DNA from: Cornus controversa
Taxonomy: Eukaryota; Streptophyta; Magnoliopsida; Cornales; Cornaceae
Length of the DNA: 64,000 nucleotides
NCBI GenBank assembly: GCA_026545225.1
Contig: CM048853.1
Span: 41,494,755 to 41,558,754, forward strand
Reading direction: 5' to 3'
Below the pieces are notes generated by a model. It searched no databases and was not told where the DNA came from. It was given only the letters and a program-made list of their open reading frames with translations. The translations under genes and the position numbers were made by a program. Shown here piece by piece: positions 16,980 through 63,503 of this stretch. Each line of letters opens with the position of its first letter. The first letter of the stretch is position 1.

Positions 16980-16989
16980 GCAAAACAAT

Positions 16990-31504: not shown

Positions 31505-31618
31505 ACCACCAAAGGTTGTAGCCTAGTGGTACTTCCTCACCTTCCAAAGTCGAAGGTCAAGGGTTCAAATCCTCATAGGGACAAAGTGAGTGTATGAGTT
31601 TCAACTAGGAAAAAAGTA
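31505..31618 (+). mobile_element. tRNA-derived SINE, copy B (114 bp)
   Basis: It carries an RNA polymerase III A box TAGCCTAGTGG (31519-31529) and a B box GGTTCAAATCC (31562-31572), each fitting the tRNA consensus, 33 bases apart. It ends in an A-rich tail and is flanked by ATGAAT repeats. Because blocks A and B share it while C and D lack it, it inserted after C and D split off but before A and B separated. Confidence 0.82.
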
Positions 31619-31624
31619 ATGAAT

Positions 31625-34130
31625 TAATTACAGTAATATTCATAATGATGATGCAGCAAAAATATTATGATTTAAATGGCCACGTATGCACACTATTATT
31701 TGCTGAAGTTTCTGGCTGTTGTATCTTTTGTTTTGGTTGTTCTTAACAAATCTATTCTCTAGCAATACTTGTTTAGTTTGTCAAGAACTAAAATTCCACG
31801 AAACAAAAAATTCAAAAACAAAGCATAGATTAAATGCCTTTCAGATGATACATAAAAATAGTTAACCATCCACACAACAATTCATAGTCTAAACTCTTAT
31901 GGCTAACAAAAAACTTTGTTTAAAATATGTTCAAAATTAGAAATTAAACGAAAGCCTAAAGGGAATTTGGTGTAACTTATCTCCCAGAAACAAAATTTAA
32001 TGCTCCGCACAACAATAAACAATACATGGTTTTTGAATCATTTTATATTATATCAGAACCATATATCAGAATCAATAAACCATCATAAATAGAGAAAACA
32101 AAGTGAGGAGTCAACATTTTCCTACAGCTGCAGCATACTAAAAATTCTCATTCAAAGAAAAATCATGAAGAGTATCATTATACATAGCCCTACCTGAGAA
32201 GAAAATTGAAGCAGGTCCTCTAAGATAATCTAACCATTAATAGTAAGTAGTTTTCTCAGAAAACAATCTTAGTTGCTAATATACATATGAGACAGTTGTA
32301 ATTAGGTTGCTCAATTCTTACTATCATTGTAAACTAAAAATATAAAAAGTGGCATCTGTGTCACGATAACTAATTAAGGGTAAGAGAACTCATGCCATCA
32401 TCCATCTAAAGACAGCAAGAGCAATCTCAATTTCTTATTATAGCTTTTTGTATAAAAATATTAGATAGTTACTTTATTACTGGAATGCTAAGGATAATTG
32501 CCCACTCAATAATGTCAATTGTGAGCAATGATACCCACTTCACTCAGTCAGTGCAAGAAGAATAGTGCAGAGAATCTAACATTAATCCTCAGTGCACTAA
32601 TTCTTCTAGACAGTAAGTGCAAGAAGAATGCATGCCATTTGTAATTATAAAGCTCATAAAAATATTTACAGAGGATGGAGATGAAGAACCAGTACAGTGC
32701 ACTAATTCTTCTAGACAGTTTCATTGTCTTGAGGTGCACCAGATACTCGATACAGAGGAATGAGTGAATTAATTAATAAAATTCTTTTCAGTTCCTAATA
32801 GATTGCTCTGTCATACTCCAACCCTGCTTTAATTCTCTCTGTTCCCAATTGTGGAGATACAGAGAAAAGGAGAAGAGAGATATGAAGCTTCTATGGACAT
32901 GGAGAATTCCTTCCATGACATTTCCTTGGAAAACCCTGTTTTCATTCTTAGCTGCTCTCTCTCTCTGTGCATGTATCTGAACCTATGTTTATGCCATGTC
33001 TCAATTATCATATAGAACAGACTTCTCATAGTATATATGATATATATTTTTCCTTTGTATGGTGGAACTCAAAATAAAATTTCTAAGCAAAAACTTAATT
33101 CCTCTCCTGTAATAATAACAGTTTCAAGTTTGAGAATTCCACCATAGGATTCAAGGGAAGTTTTGTTTGGTGGTTTCATGCCAAAGTAGTTGCATGGTGG
33201 TTACAATGTGGATCTCATTAGATTTAGAACTCAATAATATGGTGCCAACTCAATGTCCCATTCTCTAAATATTGAGAAATATTTTTTTCTTATATGAGAA
33301 TAAAAAAATCAGAGTATATGAAAGTGGTATTTGAACTTGGTAAATATGCTGGCAACTTTCTTACTTGACCTGTATAATTCTTATCAGAGATCAAAAGCGG
33401 GAACTGCTTGAGAGTGAGGGGTTTTGGAGAGTGCCATTCACGAGTGAATATAAAAATCAAGGTGAGAGTGACCTTAAAGGCCTTGCACTCCACGGCAAAT
33501 CAACTCATTCTGATTCCTTGTTAAAGATGTGCAGAATATAGGGATTGGCATGTTAGGGAAGACAAGGAGCAGTAAACATTAGGACAAGAATTGTATGACT
33601 TGAAGGAAATAGAGGTTTAAGAAGATTGTGAAGAAAAACCAGAATAATATATGGCGTAGTACTATTGTTAACATGAAAAGAATAGTGCAGAGAATCTAAC
33701 ATCAGGACACATTGTTGACATTTTATTATAATCAAGATACTCTGTATAGATTGCTAAATTGCAACTCAGCCAATTCCTTGGTGGTGGCAAAGCTTTTTTC
33801 TAACAAGCCATAACAGTGTGTAGATTCAAAAAGGAACTCCTGAATGGGAAAAAAATGCCAAGATGCTAGTTAATAGAATTTGTATCAGCTGCAACTGAGC
33901 TCATTCCAAAAATCTTTATTCTACAATTTCATGTACACAATCCATGAAAAAAATTGCCATGATGCTAGCCAACTCAGCTACTCATGCGTAGCTCCTTGTT
34001 CCCGTGGTATGAAGCATGGTTTGCTTTGAGCTTTTTTTATTTTATTTTATTTCACTCACTTCGAGTCTATGAAAGTAGAGCAATATTAGATATTTAGTAA
34101 AGTAAACTAGTTACATAAACTAATAAAAGT
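31625..34130. other. Block B: non-coding sequence paralogous to 13637-16500
   Basis: Collinear with block A including the phrase TTCTTCTAGACAGTAAGTGCAAGAAG, which also occurs twice in part within each block. No intact gene was found. A short minus frame, 33493-33290, matches 15581-15339 and remains unidentified. Confidence 0.55.
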
Positions 34131-34139
34131 TCGCCTTAC

Positions 34140-34600
34140 CTCCCCTTCCTTGGAGCTAAAGAACTTCACAAGAGACTCCTACTCCTCATTAACGAGGTGG
34201 TCGGTGGAACAAATGTTCCTCATCAGTGTCCCAAATAGAATAGTAGTGCCAGATCAGATTTGAAACCCTTCCATTTTCTTCCAATAGAAGCAATTGTCCA
34301 CTTTTTTGATATATATGGCATCTCATATTTGTGCTACAAATGTTATGAAAAGATATCAATTGGATATTATATCTCTAATTTGCGAAAAGAAATTAATAAT
34401 GTACCTAGCTTTAAAGCAATAAAATTTTTACCTGGACAAGATTCCACATGTCCTATTTTAGAGTGCGAGGGAAATGTCTCCAGTCAGTGTAGCATAATGG
34501 AGCTACCATCCCATTCTTCGCCGGTGTGCCTAGGTAATTGGCGAACTCCGCAGCCTCTTCACCGTTTAGCTCTCCAAACTCATTAACACTTCAAAACAAT
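34140..34600 (-). pseudogene. Ptta/En/Spm-type transposase 5' exons, broken (block B)
   Basis: Paralog of 16534-16979. The exon 1 region (about 34591-34434) still encodes NEFGE..GEEAAEFANYLGT. The exon 2 region (34300-34140) has internal deletions and an inserted ATATATGGCATCTCATATTTG segment, so the frame is lost. Confidence 0.65.
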
Positions 34601-34699
34601 TAGAAATCTTGTATGGTAAAGAGAATATGATACTTACCACCATTGATAGTATAAGAGTTTCAAAGCTTGAAAAAAACTGTTGAGAACAGAATAGAGGCC

Positions 34700-35790
34700 T
34701 CTTCAGGCTGATTTGCAGCAAGTTGTTTTAGTTGTGTACTGCAAATAGAAAAAAAAAATGAAGCAACACAAAAAATATATGAAGTAAAAAAGATCATGAA
34801 TTAATTACAACAATGGCAGGAGCCTTGTGCACTGGGTTTTGCCCTTTTATTTGTACTGATGATGCAGCAAATATATTATGACCTAAATGGCCACATATTC
34901 ATACTTTTACCTGCTGAAGTTTCTGACTGATGTATCTTTTGTTTCGGTTGTACTGAACAGATTGATTCTCTAGCAAATACTAATTGTTTAGTTTGTCGAG
35001 AATTAAAATTTCAAAAAGAAAGAATAATTTAAATGCCTTTTAGAAGATAAATAAAAATGGTTAACCATCCACACAGCAATTCATAGTCTAAACTCTTATG
35101 GTTGACAAAAACTTCTTTTAAAATATGCTTGAATAATCAGAAATTAAACAGAAACCTCGAGGGAATTTGTTGTAATTTATCTCCCAGAAGCAAAATTTAA
35201 TGCTCAGTACAACAAGAAACCATACATGGCTTTCAAATCATTTATATTATATCAGAACCATATATCAGAATCAATAAACCATCATACATAGAGAAACAAA
35301 GTGAGAAGCCAACATTTTCTTCAGCTGCAGAATACTGAAATTTCTCATTCAAAGAAAAATCATGAATATCATTTTACATAGCTCTACCTGAGAAGAAAAT
35401 TGAAGTAGGTCCCTAACATAATCTAGCCATTAATAGTAAGTAGTTTTCTCAGAAAACAATCTTAGTTGCTAATACACATAAGACAGGTGCAATTAGGTTG
35501 CTCAAATTCTCATTATCATCGTAAAAAAAAAAGTGGCATCCGCATCATGAATGGATAACTAATTAGGGGTGAGAGAACTCATGCCATATCTAAAGACAGT
35601 AAAAGCATTCTTAATTTCTTATTATAGCTTTTTGTATAAAAATATTAGAGAGTTACATTTTACTGGAATGCTAAGGATAATTGGCCACTTAATAATGTCA
35701 ATTGTGAGCAATGATACCCACTTCACTCCAGGGATGGTAACTAACACAGAGTTCAATATTGCTAAATGTCTTTAAAAAGCGAACTTATAT
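34700..35790. repeat. Block C, paralogous to 13430-14620 and 31420-32540
   Basis: Starts with a transposase exon remnant (GATTTGCAGCAAGTTG) and runs to ACTTCACTCCAGGGATGG. It lacks the SINE. An unrelated piece (GGCAGGAGCCTTGTGCACTGGG, 34816-34850) replaces a few bases of the other blocks. Confidence 0.7.
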
Positions 35791-36969: not shown

Positions 36970-39900
36970 TCACTCCAAGTTTATGATGATTTCACTCAAA
37001 TCCATCCTTATGTGGCGGATTTGAGAAATGGTGGGCCAATCTTCTCCTTTCTCCCTTTGGCAACGTGGTTTCAGCAGTGGACAATCCCGTATACACAGGT
37101 AAGAGAGGGAGTTGGGCAGGCCCTCTTCTGGTAAGGACTGGAGCTTAGGACAGTTGGTGATGTACAGACGTTGAAGAGAGGTGAGGTGTTGAAGGCCCTT
37201 GTGGTTCAGTGATTTCAGATTTCGAAGGCCCTCTATGCCAAGATTGGTAAGAGTGGTGGGCAATAGCCACTCCTCTGGAAATGTCTCCAACTCTTCTTCA
37301 TCATATTCACCGCCAATATCTATCTCTCGAAGAGATCGGAGTGTTCGCTGCAAACCCCACCCCATCCGACCCTTCATCAGTTTCTCGCAATTACCTACGA
37401 TGTCAAGTCGATGTAGGTTGGATGGCAAACCTCCATCTGGAAATGATTCAACTTCTGGGCAGTCATATATCGACAATCTTTCAAGAGATGGGAGGAGGGT
37501 GTGCATTCGTTGCGGCAGCGACTTCAGATTCTCACAATTCCCAACATAAAAGGAGGTCAGATTTGGAGCGCGCAGTCCAGCTTGGGCAAAGAATACCATT
37601 CTAGGGCAACCCTGTATTCTAAGCTCCATCAGATTTTGGAGCTCTTCGTCCTCTGGAATTGAAAGTGTTTCAAAATTTATACACCCCCGGATCTCTAGAG
37701 AACGAAGCTTTGGGAAGAAGCCTAACGACAGCGATTTGAGAAGATCACAGCTATTACATATCTTCAAATCTTCAATGGAACATGTCATGTGGTCATTAGG
37801 CCCTTCCGACGATGACAAGAGGGGAAACTCTAAACTCTTAGAGTCGAAGATGTAAAGTGTTTTCAATGTAGGAGGAGGTAGACCACCAATGAGGAAAGAC
37901 ACCTGAAGAAGAGATGAACAACTCGAGATCTGCAACTCTTCAAGGCAAATATTGTTGATCCCCATCATCATATTCATATTCATCCCCTCTGCTGATGCTA
38001 CTTTTATGGTCTGCAGAGCTTTACATTCACTGATCTTTAGAGCCTTAAGCATCGGCGGCAATCCTCCGTCTGAAAATGACACGAGGCTTGGACATTTCTT
38101 TATCTCCATCCTTTCAACTTTCATCAATCTGCACATTTCGGAAGGCAATTCCTTCAAGTTTGGCATCCTTGAAATCTCTAATTTCTGAAGAGAATACAGG
38201 TTTTGCAACTGCGGTGGCAATTCAGTCAAGTTTGGAATATCTGAGATTATCAATTTCTGAAGAGAAGACAGGTTTTGCAACTGCGGCGGCAATTCGGTCG
38301 AGTTTGGAATATGTGACATCATCAATTCTTCAAGGGAAGAAAGGTGTTGCAGCTGCAGCGGCAATTCCATCAAGTTTGTCATATTTGACATCTTCAATTC
38401 TTCAAGGGAAGGCAGGCCTTGCAGCAACAGCCCAACTTGATTGGACACGAGCTGTTGGCATTTGGAAATTTCAAGTTTCCTTAGAGATGGAAAGGGGATG
38501 GATAATTCATTGGTCAGCTTGGGACAATCCACCAAAGAAAGTTCTAAAAGACAAGAGAACTCTCCAACCCCTAATGCATGCCATTCTTCCCAGTGTGACA
38601 TTCTTACAAACCTTAGTCTCTCTAGAGATTGAAATGGTTTGTTAAAAGAAGAAGAAGAAGCATCTCCATAGAACTCTCGACCCACCTTTGTTATTGATTT
38701 CATTTCTTCAAATCTTAGAACTTTTAGAGAGGGTAGCTGCCCAATTGAAGGCAAGGAATAGCAATTTGCACACCTGATAAGCTTTAAGGACACCATGTTA
38801 CGAAATGAATGAGCTCCCTCTAACCAATCTGGAAATTTTGTGCTCCTATAGTTGAAGATGCGGAGAGTCTTCACCCCTTCATGAGGCTCTAACTTGTCAA
38901 GTACATTTCTTTCCTTTTGTGAATCATCAGTATCGCCATCCCATTCCAACACTAATCCTTCAAGATGCCTCTTATCCTTTATATTGGCCTCTGATGCATC
39001 TTGACCACTGACTACATTTTCCAACCCTAAAATACTGAGTTTTCCCCCAAGATGGCACAATTCCTTCAACTCCCTAATCCTTGACCCACTGTTCTTGCCA
39101 ACTACAAAACATGTTAAGTGTTGAAGATTCTTCAGTCTACTCATTTGCGTTGGCATTTCAGTCAAATTAGTTTCTCTGATATCGAGATGACGCAACTTGA
39201 TTAATTTTTCCATATGCATGGGCAACTCAGTCAAATTGAAACAATATGACAAATCTAAAATTTGTAAATTGTACAAGGTTGTTACCGAATCAGGTAATTG
39301 TTGGATTCTAGTATGAGACAGATCTAAGTAACGTAAATGTATCAAATTTTTTATTGACTCAGGCAGTTCAGAAATCTGATAATGAGACAAAGATAGCACC
39401 CTTAAGCATCTCAAACTCGGCAACAAGTTATGTAATACCTTATTGCCTAAGAAAGAATTCCAAACTTTAGAAAATGATATGAAAGTCCGCAAATACTCAC
39501 CCTCATTAATAGCCTTGAATTTCTCAAATGCATCATACTTGCCCTTAACATATGAGAAATGACGAACTTTTTCACAGATATGATCAAGTGGCTTGTCATA
39601 ATCTAGCCTTAAACAAAACTCTCCAGATATATCTTGAGCTAAGTCATGGATCAGGTCATGCATTAGAAAATCATAATTTGTGTCATGACTTAATCTTTGA
39701 AAGAAAGACCTTGATAATAGTTCATGAAAGTAGTAGTTACCTTCATCTTCCACTGATTTGTTGCCTTTGGATTGCTGCACAAGATCTAAGGCTATCCATA
39801 ACCGGATTAACTTTTTCTTTTCAAATTTGTAATCTTTCGGAAATATCGAACAGTATGCAAAACATCGCTTTAAATGTGAAGGAAGATATTGATAACTCAA

Positions 39901-41190
39901 TCTTAGGGCTGGAGGAACGCTGCAATCCAAATCCCATATCTCACTTTTGAATATATTTTCCCACTCTTCAATTTCCAATTTAGACCGCAAGAGACCTCCA
40001 AGTGATTTTACAGCTAAAGGCAAGCCTCCACATTTCTTCACAATTTCTCTACCAATACTCTCTTGCTCTGGATTAGCCATATAATCTTTATTCACAAATG
40101 CGTGCTTTGTAAATAATGACCAACAATCTTCAAACGGCAACTGCTCCAAGAGATGACTAGGAACTGTGCCCATCACGAATGCAACATTGTTAATGCGTGT
40201 CGTTACGATGATCCTACTTTCATGTGCTCCAGCTCTGAAAGGTCTTCTTAAGAGGTCCCAATCAATGTAACTGTCATTCCAAACATCATCTAAAACCATT
40301 AGAAATTTCTTTCCAGCCACGCTCTCTTTCAACTTGGTCTGAAGTTGATCAAGGTTGTTGATGCTATTGCCTATTGAGGTGACATCGTCCAAAATTTTCT
40401 TTGTTATCATGGAAATATCAAATGCGTCAGCAACACAAACCCATGATTTCATAGGAAAATTCTCATTTACTCGAGCATCATTATATACAAACTGGGCAAG
40501 GGTTGTCTTGCCTATCCCACCCATGCCTACAATGGGGATCACAGGAATCTCATTCCCAGTTGTGTTGCCGGACAACAACAATTCGATTATCTTCTCTTTG
40601 TCATCATTCCTACCACAGACCTCAGATTCATATACCAAAGATGCGGTTGGCAGCCTTTGTAATTGTTTCCTTCCTACATTATCTTTCAATTTAAGAATTT
40701 TTTTTTGCTCTACAAAACGCTCCAACTCCCTAATGATCCCTTTCATCCTGGACTCTATCTCTTCATCAGACAAATAAACGGGAGTCGAGACAGATTGATT
40801 AATGCTTAACAGAGATTGCTTGATCGAACTGAAAAATCGACTGAAACCAACCTGAGTTGTGCTGCTGTGGGTTACGGACTCATCATGATCATCTTCCAAC
40901 CTGTCTCTCATGGCTTTGGTAGCGATCTCATCCAGCAAGTCGTCGGCTTGGTATATAACATGTTGGAGCTTGTCAATCCAATCTTTTACGGATTTATTGG
41001 TAATCTGCTTGTCCTCCGCATCATCCAGCACTGCTTGGAGGGCCAGCAAGGATGTCTCCAGCTTGTCTCTGAGTTCATCATCAAGCTTTGGTTTGGAAAA
41101 GAAGCTTATGAACTCGCGAGAAGCCAACCGATCAAACAACACTTGAAGGGAAGCTGAGAGAAATGCTCCACCCACCAATGTTCCAGCCAT
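36970..41190 (-). CDS. CNL3: CC-NB-ARC-LRR disease-resistance protein (1406 aa)
   Basis: Uninterrupted intronless frame; ATG at 41190 is conserved with both paralogs. It is of the RPP13-like 1/R1-type CNL class, an intracellular ATP/ADP-binding immune receptor. Order: coiled-coil domain about 1-165 (QADDLLDEIA 81-90); P-loop GMGGIGKTT 222-230; kinase-2 KKFLMVLDDVW 294-304; IIVTTR 327-332; CGGLPLA 387-393; RNBS-D CFAYCSIFPKD 443-453; MHDLIHDLA 510-518; LRRs to about 1380. All key nucleotide-binding residues are canonical, so this is the best candidate for a working receptor. Four exact-period 72-base LRR modules lie between 38432 and 38144. An LRR stretch containing VASAEGMNMN and a Met-rich run is absent from CNL2 and accounts for most of the length difference. 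Confidence 0.96.
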   Translation of the reverse strand: MAGTLVGGAFLSASLQVLFDRLASREFISFFSKPKLDDELRDKLETSLLALQAVLDDAEDKQITNKSVKDWIDKLQHVIYQADDLLDEIATKAMRDRLEDDHDESVTHSSTTQVGFSRFFSSIKQSLLSINQSVSTPVYLSDEEIESRMKGIIRELERFVEQKKILKLKDNVGRKQLQRLPTASLVYESEVCGRNDDKEKIIELLLSGNTTGNEIPVIPIVGMGGIGKTTLAQFVYNDARVNENFPMKSWVCVADAFDISMITKKILDDVTSIGNSINNLDQLQTKLKESVAGKKFLMVLDDVWNDSYIDWDLLRRPFRAGAHESRIIVTTRINNVAFVMGTVPSHLLEQLPFEDCWSLFTKHAFVNKDYMANPEQESIGREIVKKCGGLPLAVKSLGGLLRSKLEIEEWENIFKSEIWDLDCSVPPALRLSYQYLPSHLKRCFAYCSIFPKDYKFEKKKLIRLWIALDLVQQSKGNKSVEDEGNYYFHELLSRSFFQRLSHDTNYDFLMHDLIHDLAQDISGEFCLRLDYDKPLDHICEKVRHFSYVKGKYDAFEKFKAINEGEYLRTFISFSKVWNSFLGNKVLHNLLPSLRCLRVLSLSHYQISELPESIKNLIHLRYLDLSHTRIQQLPDSVTTLYNLQILDLSYCFNLTELPMHMEKLIKLRHLDIRETNLTEMPTQMSRLKNLQHLTCFVVGKNSGSRIRELKELCHLGGKLSILGLENVVSGQDASEANIKDKRHLEGLVLEWDGDTDDSQKERNVLDKLEPHEGVKTLRIFNYRSTKFPDWLEGAHSFRNMVSLKLIRCANCYSLPSIGQLPSLKVLRFEEMKSITKVGREFYGDASSSSFNKPFQSLERLRFVRMSHWEEWHALGVGEFSCLLELSLVDCPKLTNELSIPFPSLRKLEISKCQQLVSNQVGLLLQGLPSLEELKMSNMTNLMELPLQLQHLSSLEELMMSHIPNSTELPPQLQNLSSLQKLIISDIPNLTELPPQLQNLYSLQKLEISRMPNLKELPSEMCRLMKVERMEIKKCPSLVSFSDGGLPPMLKALKISECKALQTIKVASAEGMNMNMMMGINNICLEELQISSCSSLLQVSFLIGGLPPPTLKTLYIFDSKSLEFPLLSSSEGPNDHMTCSIEDLKICNSCDLLKSLSLGFFPKLRSLEIRGCINFETLSIPEDEELQNLMELRIQGCPRMVFFAQAGLRAPNLTSFYVGNCENLKSLPQRMHTLLPSLERLSIYDCPEVESFPDGGLPSNLHRLDIVGNCEKLMKGRMGWGLQRTLRSLREIDIGGEYDEEELETFPEEWLLPTTLTNLGIEGLRNLKSLNHKGLQHLTSLQRLYITNCPKLQSLPEEGLPNSLSYLCIRDCPLLKPRCQREKGEDWPTISQIRHIRMDLSEIIINLE

Positions 41191-41310
41191 GTTCTCTTCT
41201 GTTCAGAGAGAGAGAGAGAGAGAGTTCTCTTCTTTTCACACACACAGAGGGAAAAAAGTAGCTGTGAAGAGCCTTTAGAGATGGAGAGAGAGAGGGAGCA
41301 CTGAAGAGCC
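41191..41310 (-). promoter_or_regulatory. Leader of CNL3 with GA tract
   Basis: A GA microsatellite (41206-41222), GTAGCTGTGAAGAGCCTTTAGAG and a second GA tract resemble the leaders of CNL1 and CNL2. Beyond about 41310 the similarity to the other two promoters ends, so CNL3 is driven by different upstream DNA. Confidence 0.45.
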
Positions 41311-42265: not shown

Positions 42266-42534
42266 TTGTCTTGTCAAAAGATAATTTATTCAACATATAT
42301 AACTTTTTTTGGGTCTAGAACTTTTTTTTTTTGGATATTTTTTTGTATTTTTTGATTTATTTTGTCGAAAGAATCCAGAAAAATTAAAGATTGGATACAA
42401 AGAGAGGATATCTAAAAGAGTAGTTTAGTATTTTGAAAAAAAATAATCGTTCACATATGAAGTTAAGGTTAAAAGTGGCATTTCTTTTAAAATAGAAGTG
42501 CAACTGGAGAAAAGGGAGTGCGAATATCGCCTCT
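41685..42534. mobile_element. Candidate MITE-like element with 13-bp inverted ends
   Basis: Left end GAGGGGATATTCG and right end CGAATATCGCCTC are inverted copies. The interior is made of T runs separated by GATAATTTATTCAAC-like phrases, with a (TA)n run at 42228-42261. A second, shorter copy lies at 44160-44730. T runs at both edges make the target duplication ambiguous. Confidence 0.5.
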
Positions 42535-44730: not shown

Positions 44731-45965
44731 AAATAATTACCTTCAATAATAATGTTTAAGTATCTCTCCTAGTTTTAGAGCTCAATTCACAATGGCACGT
44801 TTCTAGAGAATCAAGCCTATACTGCACAAACATTGCCTAGCTCCATCAAGACTCCATTAAGTGAGGGAGAAATCCATGCTGAAAGATGTTGTACTCTGAT
44901 AGGGTGTACCACTGGGCACTGGCTGAAGCTTGGTGGAGAGTTGTTGAAGTTAGGCTAGGGTTTTTGGTGTAGTTCAAAAAAGGTTTCTGATTACCCAAAA
45001 ATGGATCAGTAATCAATATGTCGACTCTTTGTTTGATGGGCAGTGCAAAGCTCGGTGAATTTATTTATTTTATTTTATTTTCTGAGAAAAATAAAATATT
45101 TTATTCAATAAGCAGACACTATACATAACACATGAAAGAAAATTACATAATGAATAAAATAAATATCTACATTAAGGCTCTCTTTATTTTGACCTAAAAA
45201 TGGTTTCCAAAAAAAAAAGGAAAATTAGTACTTTCTTTGTGTAAATGTTATACCTGTAAATTATTTTTCAAGAAAAAACACCTTTGATATCTATCACTTG
45301 TGCCTATGCAGCAATGATTTTCTGAATTTTGACACTCTCTCTCTCCGTCTTGAAAAAGCCGTCTTCTTACTTATTAAAAAAAGAAAAGAAAAGTAAAGCT
45401 TGAATCCCTTTGTGCATTAACTTGTTACATGATTATAAGATATTGTTTTTTTTTTTGAGTGATGAAATTTAGGATCAAATATTTTTTAAGTGAAAATTTT
45501 AATATGGGTTCTGCAATATGACTCCTCATGAGTGATTATCAAGGAACAAGTAAAGGAGAGCAAGTAGTCCTGTCATTTTGAAGGGAGTACCGTGTAGCGT
45601 TTTGAATCCAAGATGAAAAAAGAAATAGGGTTGGAATATATATATTTTTATTTGACCCAAACCGTAAAATCTTGATTGTAAAGGCTGGGTTTATGATAGG
45701 AATTTTAATTTAATCCTTTATTTATATATTTTACTTTTCTGGAGTCTTAGTTTTAGTTAGGGTAAATAACTCTGACTTTTTTTAAAGTTTGACTTAATTA
45801 TCTTCAAATTAAAGTTTTTTTCAAAATTATTTTGACACTTCTGTCAAATTAACGATTCGTTAAACAAAATCATATCTAATATACAATTACAAATGTATTC
45901 TCAAGTTATAAAATTTTTGTACAAAAATAACCTCAATTTATAATTCTACAAGTGAGATTAACATG

Positions 45966-46012
<47 letters not shown>
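44731..46012. other. Non-coding gap; CNL2-upstream marker and (TA)n
   Basis: 44920-45060 matches 26519-26665. The gap ends in a TA run of about 45 bases (45968-46012) into which the Mutator-like element has inserted. No gene recognised. Confidence 0.5.
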
Positions 46013-46015
<3 letters not shown>

Positions 46016-46193
46016 TAGTGTTCAAATGCTCCCTGGTGAGTAGGGAGTAGTCTACACACTTTTAATTCTAGCCTTCGGATTTAATCCTAAGGCTGTTAAT
46101 TAAAATAAGGTTCTCCACTCTTATATTAGGAAACTTATCAAAATTTAATTTCTATTAAACACTAATAATGTAAAATGACAATAATAGACATTA
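46013..46193 (+). repeat. MULE left terminal inverted repeat
   Basis: Matches the reverse complement of 51394-51574. Visible mismatches are AATTCTAGCC against AACTCTAGCC, TTATCAAAA against TTACCAAAA, and AGACATT against AGGCATT at the inner edge. Confidence 0.93.
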
Positions 46194-47223
46194 CTTAAAA
46201 GAAAAAAAAAATGTTATGAAAATCCAATGACTTAATTGTATAACATATTCCCTGTATTAATCCACGCCATAAATATGTAATAATATATAAACGCTTCACT
46301 AACGTCGTGCGTCCGAGTTTTTCTCCATTTTCTTTCTCAGACAAGGAAAAAGAAAAAAAAAATAGCCTAAAGAAAATAAAACCAGCCCATCACAGTCTGT
46401 CTTACAAAAGAGATGGTGAAAAGAAACTAACGAGTGCAAATCTCCAAGTCATGCTTAGAAGATGCTTGAGGCGATCACCTCTGATCATGGAGTTTAGTCA
46501 TCACCAATATATAATACGATACAAAATTTGGAGGATTGTGAGTTTACAAAGGAAGACTATGAAGCAACGGAGGATGAAGAAAATTTCCATGCCAATGAAG
46601 CTAAAGAATTTTAGGAGACAAAAATTGATGAAAAATTTTTAGAGGCAAAAAAAGGTGGAAAAAGAAGAAATAGTTGAAACGGTGGAAGGGAAAAGGTGAA
46701 AGAAATTGGTGTTGGTGAGAAATTGAAAGAAGAAAATGTTAAAGATAAAGACAAAAATCAATCAACTTGAAGACTTCAACTTTTGAACTGTAAACAGTTT
46801 ACTTTGGAATGAAAAACTTTGTTTGGAGTGTTCCCATTGCATGAAAGTGAAAAAATGAGAATTAACACATTATAATTGGAATAAGAGACAGTTTTATAGT
46901 TTTATAGACAGTGACGAATCAGGATTCCAAAAAAAATGGTAGTGTAAAGGTAGAAAGAGAAATAAAACAATTTCAAAACATGATTTCACGGTACACACGT
47001 GGAGTCAAATCCTTCAAATAAAAATTGTACATTAAATTCATGATAAAGTAATATAAATAAACTACTCAAATTGTCCAATAAAGTTTATAGGAGACTTTTC
47101 TTCTTTGTTGCACCTCCAACAAACACCTGTAGAAAATGAAATAGTTATGTTCACCAAGTAAACTAATAAAAAAATTTTGTTAAAAAAAATAAAACAAGTT
47201 GAAATATATACCTTGGAAATGAT
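46194..47223. other. MULE interior downstream of the transposase
   Basis: Contains the probable 3' UTR of the transposase, with a further donor CCAAG|GTATATATTTC near 47211 and an acceptor CTACAG near 47128, suggesting an intron after the stop. At 46300-46790 the plus strand is rich in Glu and Lys codons (for example EDYEATEDEENFHANEA) but broken; a captured host fragment is possible and unproven. Confidence 0.4.
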
Positions 47224-49615
47224 TCACTCACAATCACCATCGATATGTTCTAACTCATTTGAAACATCATCATCGCTATTTTCAGTTGATCTGTTTAAGA
47301 GAAAAGAATGAATGTCACAAATCTTTTAATAAAAGTTAAGGAAAATAAATAAATAAATGAAACTAGGAAAAAATTTTGAAGGAAAAAACTAATGTGTAAA
47401 AGATAATACCTTACCTATTAGTAAGTATTGGACAATTTCTCTTATCATGAGATTGCCCAAATTTTCCACAACCATGACAACGCCTAACTTTTGTCTTTCC
47501 TTTCTCTCGCCATGATTTTAAACGTTTACCACACCCTTTGGCCCTAACTTGAAGGGGATCATTAAAGATTCGATGTTGAGGAATATCCAATTGCTTCTCT
47601 TGCACATAATCATTACTTTCTTCGACTCTACTTGCTTTCATCTCTCTGACTTGTTCACGAACCGTTTCCAATGCCCTTGTTAATAGCTCAGTCCCTTCTT
47701 CCATAATTGCAACTTCATCAATGACAGTAGATGCAAGTTGAGATAATTTAGTACGCCTTATCAAAACAGACTTATCCGACACATTTTTAATCTCCACACC
47801 ATCTTTACCTACTACGTTTCCTGTTCTTGCAAACTTCATCCATCTTTCCATGATATAATATTTTGGCAAAAACATGATTTGTTTTATTTTAAAAAATGCA
47901 AGAATGTGCCTACATGGGATGCCTTCAAATTCAAATTTTCGACAACTGCAGTTGACCACATCGACTTTATCATATAAAAGTCTTCGCACTTTAAAATCCC
48001 CACTGCACACTTTAGTAACCTCATAAGTACATTTATTTTCATCTTCTGATATAAAATTTATTATATAAGCACTACTTTCGTAAAGCTCAACTTGAAACAT
48101 ATGGAAGTATTTTTTTGTATACAAATCCATCATTTGCTTTTCCATAGGCATCATGGATTTTAACTTCGGCTGTTCATTGACATTAACATGGTCATCACTC
48201 ACCTCTTCATGCCTTAGATGACCAATTGCTCTATTGAATCTTATGATAAAATCCATTAACGAATTATTTTTAGAGCAATATTTTTTGAAGAATGCATGTG
48301 AACTTTCTGCTCTTTGACTGCTTGACATTCCGGCAGAAAAGTATTTATTAACAAATACAGGAACCCATTTATCACGCAATCCAAACATTTTTTTCAACCA
48401 ATGATTATCATGCTGCTTACTTGTTTCCAATGCATCATTCCAAGTTTCTTCAAACTCTTCTATCGTCTCTGAATTCCATATAGATGCTTTAAAAAGGTGA
48501 TAATGATCTCGAAAAATTATAGAATCTAACTTTTCTGAAATTTTTTTCAATATGTGCCAAATGCAGTACCTATGGAATGTGTGTGGAAGAGCTTGAGCTA
48601 TAGCCTTTTCCATTGCTGGATCTTGATCAGTGATAATAACATTCGGTGCACCTTTTGGCATTGCCTTTAGCCATGTCTCAAATAGCCAAATAAATGAATC
48701 AAACGTCTCATCACTTAAAAAACCATATCCAAAAATTGTTGTTTTTCCATGGTGGTTCACACCTATTAGTGGAGCGAATATCATACTGTAACGATTTGTG
48801 TTGTATGTTGTATCAAATACAACTACATCACCAAAAAAATTATATGCTCTTCTTGCAGTGGGGTCAACCCAAAAACACCTAGTCATCCGACCATTCTCAT
48901 CCGAGTCAAATTCAAAAAAGAAAGCAGAATTTTTTTCTTGCTCTATTTGAAAGTACTCATACAACATATCTGCATCATGACCTTTGAGTCTTTCCCTCAT
49001 ATCTCGCTTATAGTTTCTAAGATCTCTTTCTGTACAACCAACATTCTGAATTCCACCAGCTTGTGTTTCGAACATGTCAAACTGTTGATATGTAGGCACA
49101 TTTATACTTCCAAATTGTTGAACCAGTGCCTTTTTTGCATCTGAAACATTACGATGTGACCTCAAAAGGTGTACTTTGCTTGGGGTTGCAAGTGGATGGT
49201 TATGACCTTCAACAAATTGACTGACTATATAATTTTCTCCACGTTGAACTACAATCAATCTTGCTTTGCACCCTTCACGTACTTTCCCTCGCTGCCTTTC
49301 TAATTTCTTTGAACTGGATTCAACATTATCATTCATTTGTCTTTCTTTTTCTTTTTTTCTTTTGTAGGACATCTCATCTGTTTCTCCTTCTTTATAACAG
49401 ACATATTGTTTCCAGTATGTTTCACCGGTCTCCTTTTTTTTCTTACTCTTATCAATTCGCACACTGAAACCAGCTTCACGGGCATACTTGTTGTAAAAAT
49501 CGTATATCTCATCTAAAGATTTGAACTCTTGACCTTCTCTTGGTTTTTTCTGATAAGCAATTTGAGGAATATATGTTTCCTCTTTTTGATTTTTCCATAA
49601 TCCTATACTATCCAT
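47224..49615 (-). CDS. FAR1-type MULE transposase, two coding exons (about 755 aa)
   Basis: Catalyses cut-and-paste movement of the surrounding element, acting on its terminal repeats in the nucleus. Numbering from the ATG at 49615: FAR1-type DNA-binding domain about 31-141 (ending EGHNHPL); MULE transposase domain about 263-445 with candidate catalytic Asp268 (FDTTY), Asp330 (TDQD) and Glu437 (SSQRAESS); SWIM zinc finger with Cys556, Cys558, Cys568 and His570; a Cys-His zinc knuckle at 713-728. The upstream frame continues to a non-ATG codon at 49669, but an acceptor TTATTTAG just before 49615 supports the ATG chosen. The first exon reaches a stop at 47411 only if unspliced. A donor AATAG|GTAAGG at 47414 and an acceptor TTAAACAG at 47291 define a 124-base intron, and the in-phase exon 47290-47224 adds an acidic tail ending IDGDCE. 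A donor CTT|GTAAGTTTC near 50711 suggests a 5' UTR exon. Confidence 0.92.
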
Positions 49616-51393
49616 ACCTAAATAAGAATAAACATGCAATATATAAATTTTGATCATAACTCCCCCCAAAAAATATTAAATAAATGAGAAGCAAACCTAC
49701 ACGTAGACGTAATTGATATCGTAATCAATCAGAATTATAATTCTTTAACACATTTATAAAAAAATAATAGGCCTCAAATATGCATAAACTAAAGTTTACT
49801 GAAATAATCTTAAATGAATAAATAAGAATATATGGACAAATAATTAAAAATTAAATTTCTCAACTTTAAAATCACTAAATAAGTGAATCGAAAAGCTTTA
49901 ATTAAGTTGCATGACTTTATAATCACTTCACTACTGAGTTATTTAAAATTCATGTCTCTATTATAACATCACCTTACACTCTCAAATTCAACTTCAGTAC
50001 TCAAAATTTTATTTGAGCTCAAATTCATCATCTATCTAAAAGAAACACAATAATATTACCATTACTAACTGATAACGTCACTATCAATTAGTCAAAATAA
50101 AATAATAATATATACACAATTCCTTCTTAATTCTCTGTTTCCATCAAAAAATCAGACACTGATCTCGTCTACACTTTTCTTTTTTCTTTTCTTTTTGTTG
50201 CTTTTAGTAGTGAATGTTATGCATGAGCTAAAACCATTGCTCTATCTGATAATTGTGATCATGGGTCCATGTTACGTTACCTCAATACTTTAGTTCTTTA
50301 ACCTAAAACTATATATGGTCCAAATTAATTAGAACCATAAAGCAATTGTCTTTGCTTTACTGTTGTGTGATAATTATATGAAAATTTAGTATTTTCTGAT
50401 ATTTGATTGAGAGTTTGGTATGCTATTGCTTTTCCATTGTTCACAAGAGATTAAAACAGTTAGGGCGAGGAAACAAAACAGGGCCATCAGGTTATCACAA
50501 ATTTTAAACATCTTTAAATATTAATAGTTTTCAAAACACAATAACGTATAATCAAGTATATTAAGCTCCAGACAAACTCAAAGTAAGGAATCAAAACACA
50601 ATGACTAAAAGTTCATCTGCCTGACTCAAACTGTAACATAAAATATAGTCAAAACAGAACGATAATTAATTTATGAAAAAAAAAATTTTGACGAGTGAAC
50701 AGAGAAACTTACAAGTTAAAGATTGGAAAAGGGTTTCTTCTTTCGATTAGAAAAGGATTTCTTCTTATGATTAATACAGGAGTATGCAATTAGGACTTTA
50801 ATAAGGTCATTGAGTTTCCATAACAGTTTTTTTTCTAAGGTCATTGGTTTCCATAGTAGTTTTTTTTTTCTATAGTCTTGCGTCTGTGACGTCTAACTAC
50901 TAAGATGAAAATATTACATAGAAAGTCGATGGACACCTCAACTAACCCACCATCAAACCCATGGCTGAACCTACCTCCAGGGCGATCTTAAGTACGTTCA
51001 CCTGCTATGGTCTTCGCTGAAAAGGAATCCTTGAGAAGATTTTGGTACCCAGTCTTGGACCTGTTGGCCTAATATTGTATTTTTTTGGAAAGAGTGTCAC
51101 CACTGCTATTGGTACAAAAGTTTATAATCTTAACAAAAATTAACTAGTAATTTTTTCTTCTTAATTTCATGTTTGTATCTAGTTGTGTAAAGATATGAAA
51201 CAATCCTATTACATGTCAGTATGTCACTATAACAAATAATTAAATAAAATAGCATGTGACTAATCAGTGTGGTCAATTACGCAACCCTTTGTATTTTAAG
51301 AAAGAGTACTCCACTCTCCAGTCTCCACCAATTGGAAGGCTAATAAGAATAATAATTATTATAATAGTAATAATAATAATTATGATAAACAAA
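49616..51393 (-). other. 5' UTR intron and promoter region of the MULE transposase
   Basis: Between the coding start and the right inverted repeat. The minus strand has a good donor (AACTTGTAAGTTTCTC, about 50711) and the acceptor next to the ATG (about 49617), consistent with one leader intron of about 1.1 kb. No other gene is seen. A (TAA)n run lies at 51360-51382. Confidence 0.45.
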
Positions 51394-51574
51394 GAATGCC
51401 TATTATTGTCATTTTACATTATTAGTGTTTAATAGAAATTAAATTTTGGTAAGTTTCCTAATATAAGAGTGGAGAACCTTATTTTAATTAACAGCCTTAG
51501 GATTAAATCCGAAGGCTAGAGTTAAAAGTGTGTAGACTACTCCCTACTCACCAGGGAGCATTTGAACACTACTG
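51394..51574 (-). repeat. MULE right terminal inverted repeat
   Basis: Inverted partner of 46013-46193; ends GGGAGCATTTGAACACTACTG at 51574 and is followed by a (TA)n run to 51595. Confidence 0.93.
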
Positions 51575-51595
51575 TATATATATATATATATATAT

Positions 51596-52099
51596 TCTCT
51601 ATTAATGTCACATCAGCACTACTGCCATTGAGAGTAGTTTTGATTTTTTTATGCTAATTGACTTTAATAGAGCTGATTGTCAATTAATGATAAGAATACC
51701 TGAAATAAAGTCAACCAAATTTTAAGAAAGATTGACCACTATATTTTAAAATTTTTAATTCTAGAATAATTAGACAAAATCTTAGATAATGTTATACTAA
51801 TTTACCCTTTTAGTTAAGTGGGCTCCTACATTTTTTTTTTCTATATCTTTTTTCACGTACAGTTGATCTCTTCTTTCTTTTACCGTACCATTACCTCAAT
51901 GCGGACAATTTCACGATTTCTTACTGGTGGAGTTATTGTTTTTGCTTCACTCAATCAGTTTTTTTATCTTTATTACTCTGCTACTTCTATTCTCTAATGA
52001 ATTTATCTTTTCTCTGTTATGTTTCAGTTTTGATCCGACAAAGACTTAAACTCTCGACTTTTCTTTTTGGAATGGAGGAGGAGGAGATACTACTTAAAC

Positions 52100-52146
<47 letters not shown>

Positions 52147-52175
52147 TTATTGTTTCTTAATTGTACTACTTAAAC

Positions 52176-52216
<41 letters not shown>

Positions 52217-52309
52217 ATATATATATATATATTGTTTCTTAATTGTACAACACTGACTCCCATTGAGCTTGGCTAGTCTAATTGTAAAGTTTCCATTCAC
52301 TTTTATGGG
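51596..52309. other. Non-coding gap with duplicated (TA)n segments
   Basis: Two (TA)n tracts (52104-52141 and 52182-52232), each followed by TTGTTTCTTAATTGTAC and the first preceded by ACTTAAACTAATT as is the second, form a short tandem duplication. No gene recognised. Confidence 0.55.
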
Positions 52310-52728: not shown

Positions 52729-54115
52729 TGGGGTTCTAAAAATTGATGAGATGTTACTTGCAACATAATAGAGATTCAGAGTGAACAAAGAGAGGTAAAA
52801 ATCCAGGCAAATGAGAGAGAGAGAGAGAAAGATGGCAATCAACACAATACACCATTGACTCCCTTGGTGAAGTTTTGAATATTTGTGGATACGAGAGAAC
52901 TGAAAGTTGAAAAGTCTAAATATATCTCCTTATTCTGATCCCCCTTTTTGTTCCCCTGGCGATGTTCTTTTATAGGCCAAGAAATGAAGATGGAGTGATA
53001 TCATGATAAGGTAATAAATATGGATATATATAACAATAATTAAAAAAGAAAAGAATATTAAGTGATGGTAAACAATAACAAGGTGTATATTGGCAGATGT
53101 AACAAAGGTAAATATTTATAATATAAAATTAATATGGTCAGGTAGGGTGAAGATATAATATATGGGAGTCAAATAATATTTCTCTCTCTACAAGTCAGGT
53201 CGAGGATAGGCTAAACGGACCCTGGATTTCAGCCACCAAACCAAGTACTTCCTCGGATCCCAAATAATCCTGAGTCCTGCTCCCAACTCAAGTCTTCAAG
53301 TCGTCAATCTTTCATGAAAAGAGTTATTTCAAGAATAGAATTGTAGGACCTCGACAGGTAGATGAGGGTCCTCAGATGAAGAGAATGAGGACCACCTCGA
53401 CAAGTAGAGAAGGTCTTTGGAAGAGGAAGAGAAGGAGGACCACGACAGGGTAGAGGAAGTCCTTGGAAAAGGAAGAGGAGGAGGACCTCAAGGTAGAGGA
53501 GGTCCTTAGAAGAGAAAGAGAAGGAGGACCTCGATAGGGTAGAGGAGGGTCCTCAGAGGAGGACCGCGGTATATAGAGGAGGAGGAGCTCGACCGATAGA
53601 AGAGTGCTCGGAGGAAGATGAGGACCATTTCGATAGGTAGATCGAGCTAGGGTCCTCGGTGGAGGAGGAGGAGCTCGACCAATAGAAGAGAGTGCTCGGA
53701 GGAAGATTAAGACCACCTCGAGAGGTATATCAAGGATCCTCGGTGAAGGAGAAGGAAGAGCTCGGCCGATAGAAGAGAGTGCTCGGAGGAAGATGAGGAC
53801 CACCTCGATAGATAAATCGAGGGTCCTCGGTGGAGGAGGAGGAAAAGGACCACCTCGACAGGTAGATCGAGGGTCTTCGGTGGAAGAGGAGGACCACCTC
53901 GACAGGTAAATCAAGGGTCCTCGGTGGAGGAAGAGGAAGAGGAAGAGATCCTCAAAAAGACCAAAGATTTTGGTCCTTAATTAGACGTTTTACTGATGGC
54001 GTGACATGTGCAACGTAATTTGGCTGTTGACCGTTTGACCAAGCTAAAAAGGCCATTTTTGCTGATGTGGCATCAAAATATTGACTGAAATATTTGACTA
54101 CCTATACTAACAACA
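52729..54115 (-). mobile_element. Solo LTR-like insertion, 1.39 kb
   Basis: The insertion begins TGGGGTTC and ends TAACAACA, so on the minus strand it starts TGTTGTTA and ends CCCCA, the TG..CA form of LTRs. Flanks TATAG and TCTAG could be a 5-bp target repeat with one change. A minus-strand TATA-like CCTATAAAAG lies near 52970. The paralogous block at about 18140 lacks it, which shows that it is an insertion. No internal coding region. Confidence 0.65.
53340..53950. repeat. GA-rich minisatellite inside the LTR-like insertion
   Basis: About 600 bases of imperfect tandem units built from GAGGACCACCTCGACAGGTAG, ATCGAGGGTCCTCGGTGGAGG and GAGGAGGAGCTCGACCGATAG in changing order. The minus strand stays open for 180 codons (53914-53372), giving a repetitive Ser/Pro/Arg-rich peptide that I attribute to the repeat, not to a gene. 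Confidence 0.8.
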
Positions 54116-59500: not shown

Positions 59501-60039
59501 AAATTGGACTTAATCTTCAATCATAACCATTAAACCAACGTAGTCTCTATGGGATCAACACCCTCTATATAAAGCCCTATCCTACCAATGATTCGTTCTA
59601 TTGTGAGTGGTAAATACACTTTGATTGTGAAAATAAAAGTACACATCAATGTTAAAATTGGAAGATTGAATCTAGTTTGATTCTTAACTTAGCTCATTCT
59701 TTAAATTCTTTACTTGTAAGTATTTTTGTTCTTACTTTTCAAGTGCTAAATTTTAGGTACTAATCACTCACTTATTGCTTCAAGACTTAAGTTTGGACCC
59801 TTTGTGAGTATTGTATCAAACTTTCTTGCACTTAAATGCTTTAATTTTGTTTTTGTATATATTTTAGGATAGTGCCCATTGCCAAGGTAGAAGATCTTTA
59901 TCGTTACCGTTGTTGCCATTTGATCTTGAACTTAAATGAACTTTTAGACAACATAGAGGCATTCCTAGGGACCCTATCTTGTTCAGAGAACATAGAAGAG
60001 AAAACATGGTTAATAATGATAATGTTAATGTGCAATAAA

Positions 60040-61690
60040 ATCCAATCCTTCAACCACCACCCCCTCCAAATGGGGAGGTTCTTAGGGATTTCTACGTTTC
60101 ATTTACCTATGCATCACCATCGTGTATTCATTTCCTTAATGTGGCGACGAATCACTTTAAAATTAAATCCTCTACTATTAGTCTTTTAAATTGTTTCCAC
60201 GGTATCAGGGACTTAGAGTTTGGGCTACCTAACGAAGATCTTTACAAACACATAGATGACTTCTTAAAAGTATGTTCAACCCTACGGTTGCACAACTTCA
60301 TAGAAGACGACTTAAGGCTTCGTCTATTCTCCTTCTCACTCAAGGATAAAGCCAAACAATGGCTCAATTCCTTAAAGCCCCATTCTATTAAATCTTGGGC
60401 AGAAATACAACGAGAGTTTCTAAAGAAATATTTTTCAATGGGAAAGACTAGTGATGTACGGAGAGCCGTCATCAATTTTTCTCAATGGGATGGAGAACTT
60501 TTCCATGAAATATGAAAGAGAATGAAAGACCTTTTGCGATCATGTTCACACCATACTATCTTTAAATAGAAATTGGTGCAAGGTTTCTATGATGGTCTAA
60601 GTGAACTCCATAAGCAAATAATAGAGACTAGTTATGGGGGTACGTTCAAAAATTTGTCTCAACGTTCTTTTGTTGAAAGGAAGGGTAAGAATATTGCTCC
60701 CTCTAATGCCAAAGCTGAGAGCATCTTTGAATTGTGCAAAGAACATGCAACCGACATGAAAATAGATGTTCTGTCAAAGAAACTTGACCAAGTTATATTG
60801 GTCAGGACTTATTCTTCTACCTTTCCTACTCCTCCGAATTCCATTCCTCGTCCTACTCATGATGTGTGTTCATTTTGTTCTAGTCCTGCTCATTATCTTG
60901 TGAATTGTCCTTATATGGGGCAATATCTCAAGTTTTCTCAAGAACAAGCGAATACACTTTACTCTAGGCCAGGGGCAAAATTCCTATCCAAATACTTATA
61001 ACCCAGGATAGATAAATCAAACCAATGTCTAATATGTGAACCAAGGTCAATATCAAATTCAAGGACCTTGGGGACCTCAAGGACAACAATGTCTATCTCA
61101 ATTCCAACCTAGACCTTATCAACCAAATTCAAGTTTCTACACTACTCCACCACCTCCTCCTCGAAATCCAAATTTTGAGGACAAGGTGTTGGCGGCATTA
61201 AATAACCTTGAGTCCAATACTCAATTGTTGCACTCCCTCTCTCAATCCATTTCAAAGTTAGAATCCCAAATGGGACAACTAGCAAATAAAATGAATAGAA
61301 GAGAAAGGGAAAATTGCCAAGCCAACTAGTGGTAAATCCTAAAGGAGCCCATGTAATTGATGAGACTTGCTCTTCACCTGAGTATTCTCAAGAACAAGCT
61401 CAATCAATTACTACCTTAAGGAGTGATAGAATCTTAGAAAACCAATTTGATATGCAAATAGAGAAAGAATGTGAGCACTCTACAAATCCAAATTTCTTCA
61501 CTTTAAATCCAAATCAAGCTCCTTCCATTCCAAATTCAAATGTTTCTTCTAAACATCCAAACTTTTCAAAAGATAAAGGAAAGGCAAATGAAACTCATTT
61601 ATCATTTGCTCCAAATCAAGAAGCTTCATTTGAGCCTAGAGCCCCATTTTCACAAAGATTGAGTGAGTCTTCTCATTTTTTGAAGCAATG
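60040..61690 (+). pseudogene. gypsy gag relic
   Basis: The frame through PPPPPNGEVLRDFYVSFTYA into FKIKSSTISLLNCFHG and LFSFSLKDKAKQWLNSL is the retrotransposon gag domain (PF03732 type). A zinc knuckle with Cys-x2-Cys-x4-His-x4-Cys spacing (CSFCSSPAHYLVNC) lies near 60867-60910. In-frame stops near 60513, 60567, 61001 and 61329, and frame changes, disable it. Confidence 0.75.
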
Positions 61691-62859: not shown

Positions 62860-63503
62860 GTAAAATTGCTAGATGTCAATATTATATACCCTATCTTTGA
62901 TAGCAAGTGGGTAAGCCCCACATAAGTGGTGCCAAAGAAATCCGGTATCACCGTGCTCTTAAACGAACAAGGAGAGTTAGTTCCTCAATGCACAACCACC
63001 AATTAGAGGGTGTGTATTGATTATAAGAAGCTAAATTCTTCTACTAGGAAAGATCACTTACCACTTCCATTTATTGATCAAATCCTAGAGAGGCTTACGG
63101 GCCAAAGCTTTTATTGCTTCCTAGACATATATTTCGACTATAATCAAGTGGCCATAGACCCGCAAGACCAAGAGAAAATAACATTCATATATCCATTCAG
63201 AACATTCACATATAGACGCATGTCATTTGGGCTATGCAATGCGACGATAACTTTTCAACGGTGCATGATGTCTATCTTTTTAGATGTGGTGGAGAAGTTC
63301 CTAGAAGTGTCTATGGATGATTTTTTCATCTTTGGACCTTCTTTTGATTCGTGCCTTCATAATCTTACACTTGTACTTAAGTGTTATAAGGACACAAATT
63401 TAATCCTTAATTGGAAAAAGAGCCATTTCATGGTTCAAGAGGATATTATCCTTGGGCACATTATGTCCAAAAGAGAAATATAGGTTGATAGAGCCAAGCT
63501 ATA
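62860..63503 (+). pseudogene. gypsy reverse transcriptase relic
   Basis: Domain landmarks in order: IIYPIFDSKWVSP, VVPKKSGITV, VCIDYKKLNSS, MSFGLCNATITFQRCM, VSMDDFFIFG (the YxDD catalytic box with Met in place of the aromatic residue) and LGHIMSKREI. A TAG replaces the Trp before VCIDY, and the reading stops at 63483. The preceding 62400-62860 region lacks a continuous frame. Confidence 0.75.

What the first reader, a model, noticed from the sequence alone, without database searches (positions are those of the whole stretch)
46013..51574. Near-intact FAR1-type Mutator element beside a resistance-gene cluster
Seen: inverted repeats of about 180 bp with about three differences, and a transposase with FAR1-type, DDE-type, SWIM and zinc-knuckle features and no internal stop. 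Known: FAR1/FHY3 transcription factors derive from this MULE class. Inference: recent arrival and possible autonomy. The TIRs allow a host FRS gene to be told apart from a live transposon here.
Basis: partly seen in the sequence, partly recalled or inferred. Interest (0 to 1): 0.8.

Follow-up and report, generated by a model that had tools for sequence, protein, structure and literature searches.

The report
Jumping gene inside a TA microsatellite
A largely intact plant Mutator-type jumping gene, with the same protein design as the light-signalling regulators FAR1/FHY3, sits in a run of TATATA repeats, probably in the middle of an older, smaller jumping gene; it is a good new example of a known kind of element, not a new kind.

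Summary
Inverted repeats 46013-46192 and 51395-51574 are 180 bp with 3 differences. Between them a minus-strand gene encodes a 755-aa transposase (two predicted coding exons, no internal stop) with FAR1, MULE and SWIM domains above Pfam cut-offs and a D-D-E triad spaced 62/107. By architecture it is a Jittery/FAR1-type MULE, not a host FRS gene.

First, both ends abut (TA)n tracts, so no unique 8-11 bp target repeat can be read; this puts the element beside TA-associated MULEs (AutoMuTAnT, SaTar-MULEs). With symmetric ends only an even-length duplication (8 or 10 bp) fits, not 9. Second, the TA tract lies at the centre of an apparently older palindrome: GGGTAAAT at 45760, ATTTACCC at 51807, arms 74% identical over aligned bases, flanked by a perfect 9-bp duplication. 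The likeliest history is nested: a foldback MULE-MITE, then this MULE into its central TA tract.

Recency and autonomy stay plausible but unshown: TIR identity is not a clock, the genome search did not complete, and no second copy, transcript or empty allele was seen. New member of a known kind.

The parts
46013..51574 (-). FAR1/Jittery-type MULE, 5562 bp (orientation of the transposase gene)
   Evidence: TIRs and transposase
46013..46192 (+). terminal inverted repeat, arm at the 3' side of the gene
   Evidence: 180 bp, 177 of 180 matching the other arm
51395..51574 (-). terminal inverted repeat, arm at the 5' side of the gene
47415..49615 (-). transposase exon 1 (start codon at 49615): FAR1 finger, RNase H-like MULE domain with D268-D330-E437, SWIM, zinc-knuckle motif
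47291..47414 (-). predicted 124-bp intron, GTAAGG...ACAG, 78% A+T; it removes the TAA that ends the open frame
   Evidence: sequence-based prediction; no transcript seen
47224..47290 (-). predicted transposase exon 2 with acidic C-terminus and stop codon; protein 755 aa in all
49618..50712 (-). predicted leader intron, 1095 bp (GTAAGT donor, TTATTTAG acceptor just before the start codon)
   Evidence: sequence-based prediction; no transcript seen
45967..46012 (.). (TA)23 tract abutting the left end of the MULE
51575..51595 (.). (TA)10.5 tract abutting the right end of the MULE
45760..45966 (+). left arm of the enclosing, apparently older palindromic element (starts GGGTAAAT)
   Evidence: 142 of 191 aligned bases match the right arm, 37 gap columns
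51596..51807 (-). right arm of the enclosing element (ends ATTTACCC)
45751..45759 (+). 9-bp target site duplication of the enclosing element, TTTTAGTTA, left copy
51808..51816 (+). 9-bp target site duplication of the enclosing element, right copy

Best explanation
A FAR1/Jittery-type Mutator-like transposon (5562 bp, 180-bp TIRs, one transposase gene) inserted into a TA microsatellite. Inferred mechanism, by analogy with studied MULEs: the FAR1 zinc finger of the transposase binds the long TIRs, the RNase H-like D-D-E domain cuts the element out and joins it to staggered cuts in a target (TA)n tract, and host repair fills the gaps into a duplication that is hidden within the TA repeat. The target tract lay at the centre of an older foldback MULE-type MITE that had earlier inserted with its own 9-bp duplication. 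Shown here: the TIRs, the domains, the open frame, the TA flanks, the enclosing palindrome and its 9-bp duplication. Inferred: splicing, transposase activity, TA targeting as a habit of the family, and the order of insertion.
For: TIRs 177 of 180 matching. FAR1, MULE, ZSWIM1-3 RNase H-like, SWIM and Transposase_mut Pfam matches above cut-off. D-D-E spacing 62/107 against Jittery 62/110 and TED 62/99, worked out from residue numbers in PMC9569675 (passages). Domain order and TIR length fit the plant Jittery subgroup of PMC6446971 (FAR1 at N-terminus, SWIM or CCHC at C-terminus, TIR 39-292 bp or none, one ORF; passages). Only 249 of 58,371 bases of the window outside the element and its two flanking tracts lie in TA tracts of 14 nt or more (0.43%), so a random insertion would rarely be flanked by TA on both sides. 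AutoMuTAnT has the same layout: 4873 bp, single Jittery-like gene, 59 and 27 TA repeats at its ends (PMC4486113). Enclosing element: the only GGGTAAA...TTTACCC pair within 12 kb in the window, with a 9 of 9 duplication; an 8-bp inverted repeat with adjoining 9-bp direct repeat was found once in the real flanks and 0 times in 200 single-base shuffles; arm symmetry without the 8-bp ends scored 33.5 against a maximum of 27.5 in 1000 dinucleotide shuffles, and the arms score 41.5 inverted but 11.0 in direct orientation. Inner against outer arm differences 3/180 and 49/191, Fisher p = 1.7e-12.
Against: No second copy of the element or of the enclosing MITE was seen; the host genome search did not complete. 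The duplication of the MULE itself cannot be read. A single insertion in a TA tract does not prove targeting, and the 0.43% was worked out after the TA flanks were seen; so were the shuffle tests of the enclosing element. In the arm-symmetry control, 2 of 544 scores (both from one 13% G+C segment at 43467) exceeded the observed value, and in the folded empty site only 49 of 141 pairs join the two arms, so the symmetry by itself is not overwhelming; the duplication carries more weight. The guayule study saw no nested insertions in its TA-associated arrays (PMC5907723), so nesting would be unusual for that kind of element. FAR1 also occurs in half the members of the plant Hop subgroup (PMC6446971), so Jittery rather than Hop is not settled. 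The zinc knuckle is supported by motif only.
Confidence: 0.75

Rival explanations
1. One single 6048-bp MULE (45760-51807) with TIRs of somewhat over 400 bp, each made of an outer 207-212 bp block, a TA tract and the inner 180-bp block, inserted once with the 9-bp duplication TTTTAGTTA.
For: It explains why TA tracts sit at symmetric places in both arms and gives the element an ordinary 9-bp MULE duplication. A guayule TA-linked MULE of 5.3 kb has 400-bp TIRs (PMC5907723 passages).
Against: The outer blocks are 74% identical over aligned bases and the inner blocks 98% (Fisher p = 1.7e-12); arms of one element should have aged together unless only the inner part was converted.
Confidence: 0.12
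2. A domesticated FAR1/FRS host gene that lies between chance or captured inverted repeats.
For: Intact FAR1-MULE-SWIM protein; FHY3/FAR1 genes share this layout (PMC2528002 passages).
Against: Near-identical 180-bp TIRs bracket the gene at both ends; domesticated copies in general lack TIRs (same paper). A D-D-E triad is kept.
Confidence: 0.03
3. The MULE is as described but dead: silenced, or carrying a hidden missense or splice defect. (This does not exclude the best explanation; it bears on autonomy.)
For: No transcript evidence. From the divergence of the TIRs about 18 substitutions would be expected in exon 1, and 5.4% of single-base changes make a stop (360 of 6606), so an open frame is only a weak sign of function. 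Putatively intact transposases are a minority among candidate coding MULEs of maize (31 of 530) and rice (168 of 476) (PMC3903597 passages).
Against: The domains and the triad are present with no frameshift or stop.
Confidence: 0.4
4. The TA flanks were made or lengthened by the element (slippage after insertion) instead of being its target.
For: In Medicago occupied sites carry more TA repeats per flank (15 on average in ecotypes) than empty sites (nine on average) (PMC4486113).
Against: Empty Medicago sites were themselves TA tracts (same source), and both flanks here are TA.
Confidence: 0.1

Closest known systems
AutoMuTAnT / MuTAnT of Medicago truncatula (PMC4486113)
   Same: Putative autonomous MULE of about 5 kb, one Jittery-like transposase gene, both ends in long TA tracts
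   Different: AutoMuTAnT has five exons and 833 aa, and the TIR mask used to find it was GGGGTTTGCTAGAACA; here two predicted coding exons, 755 aa, termini CAGTAGTG. MuTAnTs make 9-nt duplications; here the TA phase fits only an even length if the ends are symmetric. The sequences themselves were not compared
AgS-MULE / SaTar elements of guayule and rice (PMC5907723)
   Same: MULEs flanked by microsatellites, TA among them; 10-bp duplications in guayule fit the even-length rule found here
   Different: Those lie in ordered arrays and the authors saw none nested in the clusters; here the element interrupts another one
Jittery of maize and the plant Jittery group of MULEs (PMC9569675, PMC6446971)
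   Same: FAR1 at the N-terminus, D-D spacing of 62, SWIM, no mudrB found, TIRs near 200 bp
   Different: D-E spacing 107 against 110; no sequence of Jittery was at hand, so no tree was built; the TED/Jittery paper gives 9-bp duplications
FHY3/FAR1/FRS host genes
   Same: Domain layout (PMC2528002)
   Different: Host genes in general lack TIRs

Membership tests
Mutator superfamily (MULE) | MULE/Mutator D-D-E transposase | tested here: met
   PF10551 over its whole length, PF00872 above cut-off; D268, D330, E437
Mutator superfamily (MULE) | long terminal inverted repeats | tested here: met
   180 bp, 3 mismatches
Mutator superfamily (MULE) | 8-11 bp target site duplication | tested here: inconclusive
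   TA on both sides: of the lengths 2 to 24 tried, every even one from 2 to 20 fits and no odd one does with symmetric ends; 7, 9 and 11 fit if one end is shifted by one base
Jittery/FAR1 clade | FAR1 domain at the N-terminus and SWIM/CCHC at the C-terminus, single ORF | tested here: met
   PF03101 and PF04434; the longest other ORF of the element, 132 aa on the plus strand at 46244-46642, has no Pfam match, the shorter ones listed were not scanned; CCHC by motif only; FAR1 is shared with half of the plant Hop subgroup
Jittery/FAR1 clade | transposase groups with Jittery in a tree | not tested
   no plant transposase sequences were available; two collection scans gave no relatives
TA-microsatellite-targeting MULEs (MuTAnT, SaTar) | both ends abut (TA)n tracts | tested here: met
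   (TA)23 and (TA)10.5
TA-microsatellite-targeting MULEs (MuTAnT, SaTar) | many family members in independent TA tracts | not testable with these tools
   host genome search unanswered at 8 of 8 tries
FRS/FHY3 host gene | no TIRs, conserved place in related species | tested here: not met
   TIRs present; conserved place not tested
MULE-type MITE (enclosing element) | inverted-repeat ends with a 9-bp duplication | tested here: met
   GGGTAAAT ends, 9 of 9 duplication, arms 74% identical over aligned bases
MULE-type MITE (enclosing element) | many short copies in the genome | not testable with these tools
   no further copy in the window by blastn of the two arms; genome search unanswered

The most novel reading that the evidence does not exclude
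The MULE did not merely hit a TA tract: it chose the apex of a palindrome. The (TA)n loop of a foldback MULE-MITE (hairpin or cruciform) would be the preferred landing structure, so that small foldback MITEs act as docking sites for autonomous MULEs, and the FAR1 finger or the catalytic domain would read an extruded TA hairpin instead of sequence alone.
Probability: 0.08. Interest if true: 0.65.

Novelty: new member of a known kind. Interest (0 to 1): 0.4.

Why it matters
Small MULE-type MITEs in TA repeats can be very abundant (21,994 full-length copies in pineapple, where the authors found no autonomous partner; PMC8449440 passages). Coding TA-associated MULEs named in the passages I saw are few: one in Medicago, six families in guayule and four, called defective, in rice (PMC5907723 passages). 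A copy with an open FAR1-type transposase, near-identical TIRs and TA flanks is a candidate source enzyme, so that one could ask how a MULE transposase reaches TA microsatellites. The nesting also gives an order of events and an empty-site prediction that a single PCR could test.

Tried and rejected
An 8-11 bp duplication next to the MULE ends: not resolvable in TA repeats. Further copies inside the window: the TIR matched only its two places and the transposase only itself; the whole element had one extra match of 45 bp at 84% (window 927-969, E=5e-5), not followed up; the enclosing arms had no match better than E=0.01 apart from themselves. An empty site among the duplicated parts of the NLR cluster: matches to the flanks exist (for example 42338-42527, 17507-17722) but none spans the insertion. 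Relatives in viral contigs and in bacterial and archaeal genome contigs, by six exact peptides each: 0 confirmed of 2 and of 6 pattern matches. Solved structures by sequence: one match, E = 0.11, to an oxidoreductase, taken as chance. A structure prediction was asked for four times and never accepted. A text search for the end sequences of the two elements: 10 of 11 papers listed, none on transposons by title, none opened. The plus-strand 132-aa ORF 46244-46642 has no Pfam match. All three TIR differences are transitions with T or A in the left arm and C or G in the right, which would fit deamination of methylated cytosines in the left arm; three sites are too few to say.

Full report
Check of the observation. 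The inverted repeats are at the stated coordinates to the base: 180 bp, mismatches at positions 54, 126 and 176, and no clear similarity further inward. The gene between them is on the minus strand. Its open frame runs from an ATG at 49615; an intron prediction from the sequence (GTAAGG donor at 47414, ACAG acceptor ending at 47291, 124 bp, 78% A+T) removes the TAA that ends the frame and adds a short acidic exon ending at 47224, giving 755 aa. A GTAAGT donor at 50712 and an acceptor two bases before the ATG suggest a leader intron of 1095 bp. Neither intron has transcript support here. Pfam places FAR1 (E=3e-18), MULE (E=8e-30, whole length), an RNase H-like ZSWIM1-3 domain, SWIM and Transposase_mut above their cut-offs. 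The triad is D268, D330, E437, assigned by motif and spacing, not by an alignment to Jittery. The zinc knuckle is a motif match only.

What it is. Domain order, single gene, TIR length and D-D spacing are those of Jittery-type MULEs: Jittery 62/110, TED 62/99, here 62/107 (residue numbers in PMC9569675, passages; group table of PMC6446971, passages, 12 of 17 places shown). The same table lists FAR1 in half the members of the plant Hop subgroup, and no plant transposase sequences were available for a tree, so membership of the Jittery clade rests on architecture. TIRs speak against an ordinary host FRS gene, since domesticated copies in general lack them (PMC2528002, passages, 12 of 29 places shown).

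The TA flanks. The left end abuts (TA)23 and the right end (TA)10.5. Outside the element and these two tracts, 249 of 58,371 bases of the window lie in TA tracts of at least 14 nt (0.43%), so TA on both sides is unlikely for random insertion, although this figure was worked out after the fact and for one insertion only. The same layout is described for AutoMuTAnT of Medicago (PMC4486113, parts 1 and 2 of 4 read), for guayule and rice SaTar-MULEs (PMC5907723, 12 of 27 passages and section 17) and for pineapple MITEs (PMC8449440, passages). The phase of the TA repeat still says something: with symmetric ends, every even duplication length from 2 to 20 fits and no odd one does (2 to 24 tried); 7, 9 and 11 fit only if one end is shifted by a base. 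That favours 8 or 10 bp over the 9 bp reported for Jittery, TED and MuTAnT, and agrees with the 10 bp of guayule elements and the 8 bp listed for part of the plant Jittery subgroup.

The enclosing element. Beyond the TA tracts, GGGTAAAT at 45760 and ATTTACCC at 51807 are flanked by TTTTAGTTA on both sides, 9 of 9. It is the only GGGTAAA...TTTACCC pair within 12 kb in the window; an 8-bp inverted repeat with adjoining 9-bp direct repeat occurred once in the real flanks and in 0 of 200 single-base shuffles. The two arms (207 and 212 bp) align end to end as an imperfect palindrome, 142 of 191 aligned bases with 37 gap columns; they score 41.5 inverted and 11.0 direct. Without the 8-bp ends the score is 33.5 against a mean of 12.6 and a maximum of 27.5 in 1000 dinucleotide shuffles, while 2 of 544 window controls, both from one very A+T-rich segment, exceeded it (38.0 and 36.0). 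Folded as DNA, the joined arms are more stable than shuffles (z = -3.6 without and -3.3 with nine TA units, 60 shuffles each), but only 49 of 141 and 49 of 148 pairs join the two arms, so the hairpin is weak today. These tests were made after the feature was seen by eye. A 9-bp duplication fits a MULE, and foldback structure is described for MuTAnTs.

Order of events. Inner arms differ at 3 of 180 positions, outer arms at 49 of 191 aligned ones (Fisher p = 1.7e-12). The simplest history is a foldback MITE with a central TA tract, then insertion of the FAR1-type MULE into that tract. The rival is one 6048-bp element with composite TIRs; it needs conversion of the inner block alone. The guayule study reports that nesting was not observed in its clusters, so this arrangement is either an exception or a different situation, because here the TA tract belongs to the interior of a MITE.

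Recency and autonomy. TIRs are not identical by necessity at insertion, so 3 of 180 is no date. From that divergence (halved per arm) about 18 substitutions would be expected in exon 1; 5.4% of single-base changes make a stop (360 of 6606), so about one stop would be expected and its absence is only weakly informative. The coding parts expected of an autonomous Jittery-type element are present; nothing shows that they work.

Limits. The host genome search was unanswered eight times of eight, structure prediction four times of four. The host is not identified; NLR genes and the FAR1 gene point to a flowering plant (recalled knowledge). What I say about earlier work rests on six text searches of an open-licence library and on passages of seven papers; the papers on Micron and the original one on Jittery were not read.

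Noticed in passing
6402-9487 (+): A third NLR-like gene, 77-88% alike in blocks to the other two, is split over three stop-to-stop frames and looks like a pseudogene, while those at 22046-26221 and 36970-41202 are open over 1391 and 1410 codons.
   Followed up: partly
12936-17081 and 30645-34692, with a partial third copy at 35122-35761: Segmental duplication of about 4 kb beside the NLR genes; the listed matching blocks are mostly 89-99% alike, some 68-75%.
   Followed up: no
51617-51624: CACTACTG, the terminal 8-mer of the MULE, recurs just outside its right end inside the arm of the enclosing element; it also occurs at 49929 and, reversed, at 28181, so probably chance.
   Followed up: partly
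52088-52251: Tandem duplication (89% alike) of a TA tract plus about 40 bp just outside the enclosing element.
   Followed up: no
60039-60515 and 63007-63483 (+): Fragments of a retrotransposon: a gag domain and a reverse transcriptase domain in separate open frames.
   Followed up: no
11172-11469 and 53600-53943: Minisatellites: 30-bp units in the first, copies 44-88 bp apart in the second.
   Followed up: no
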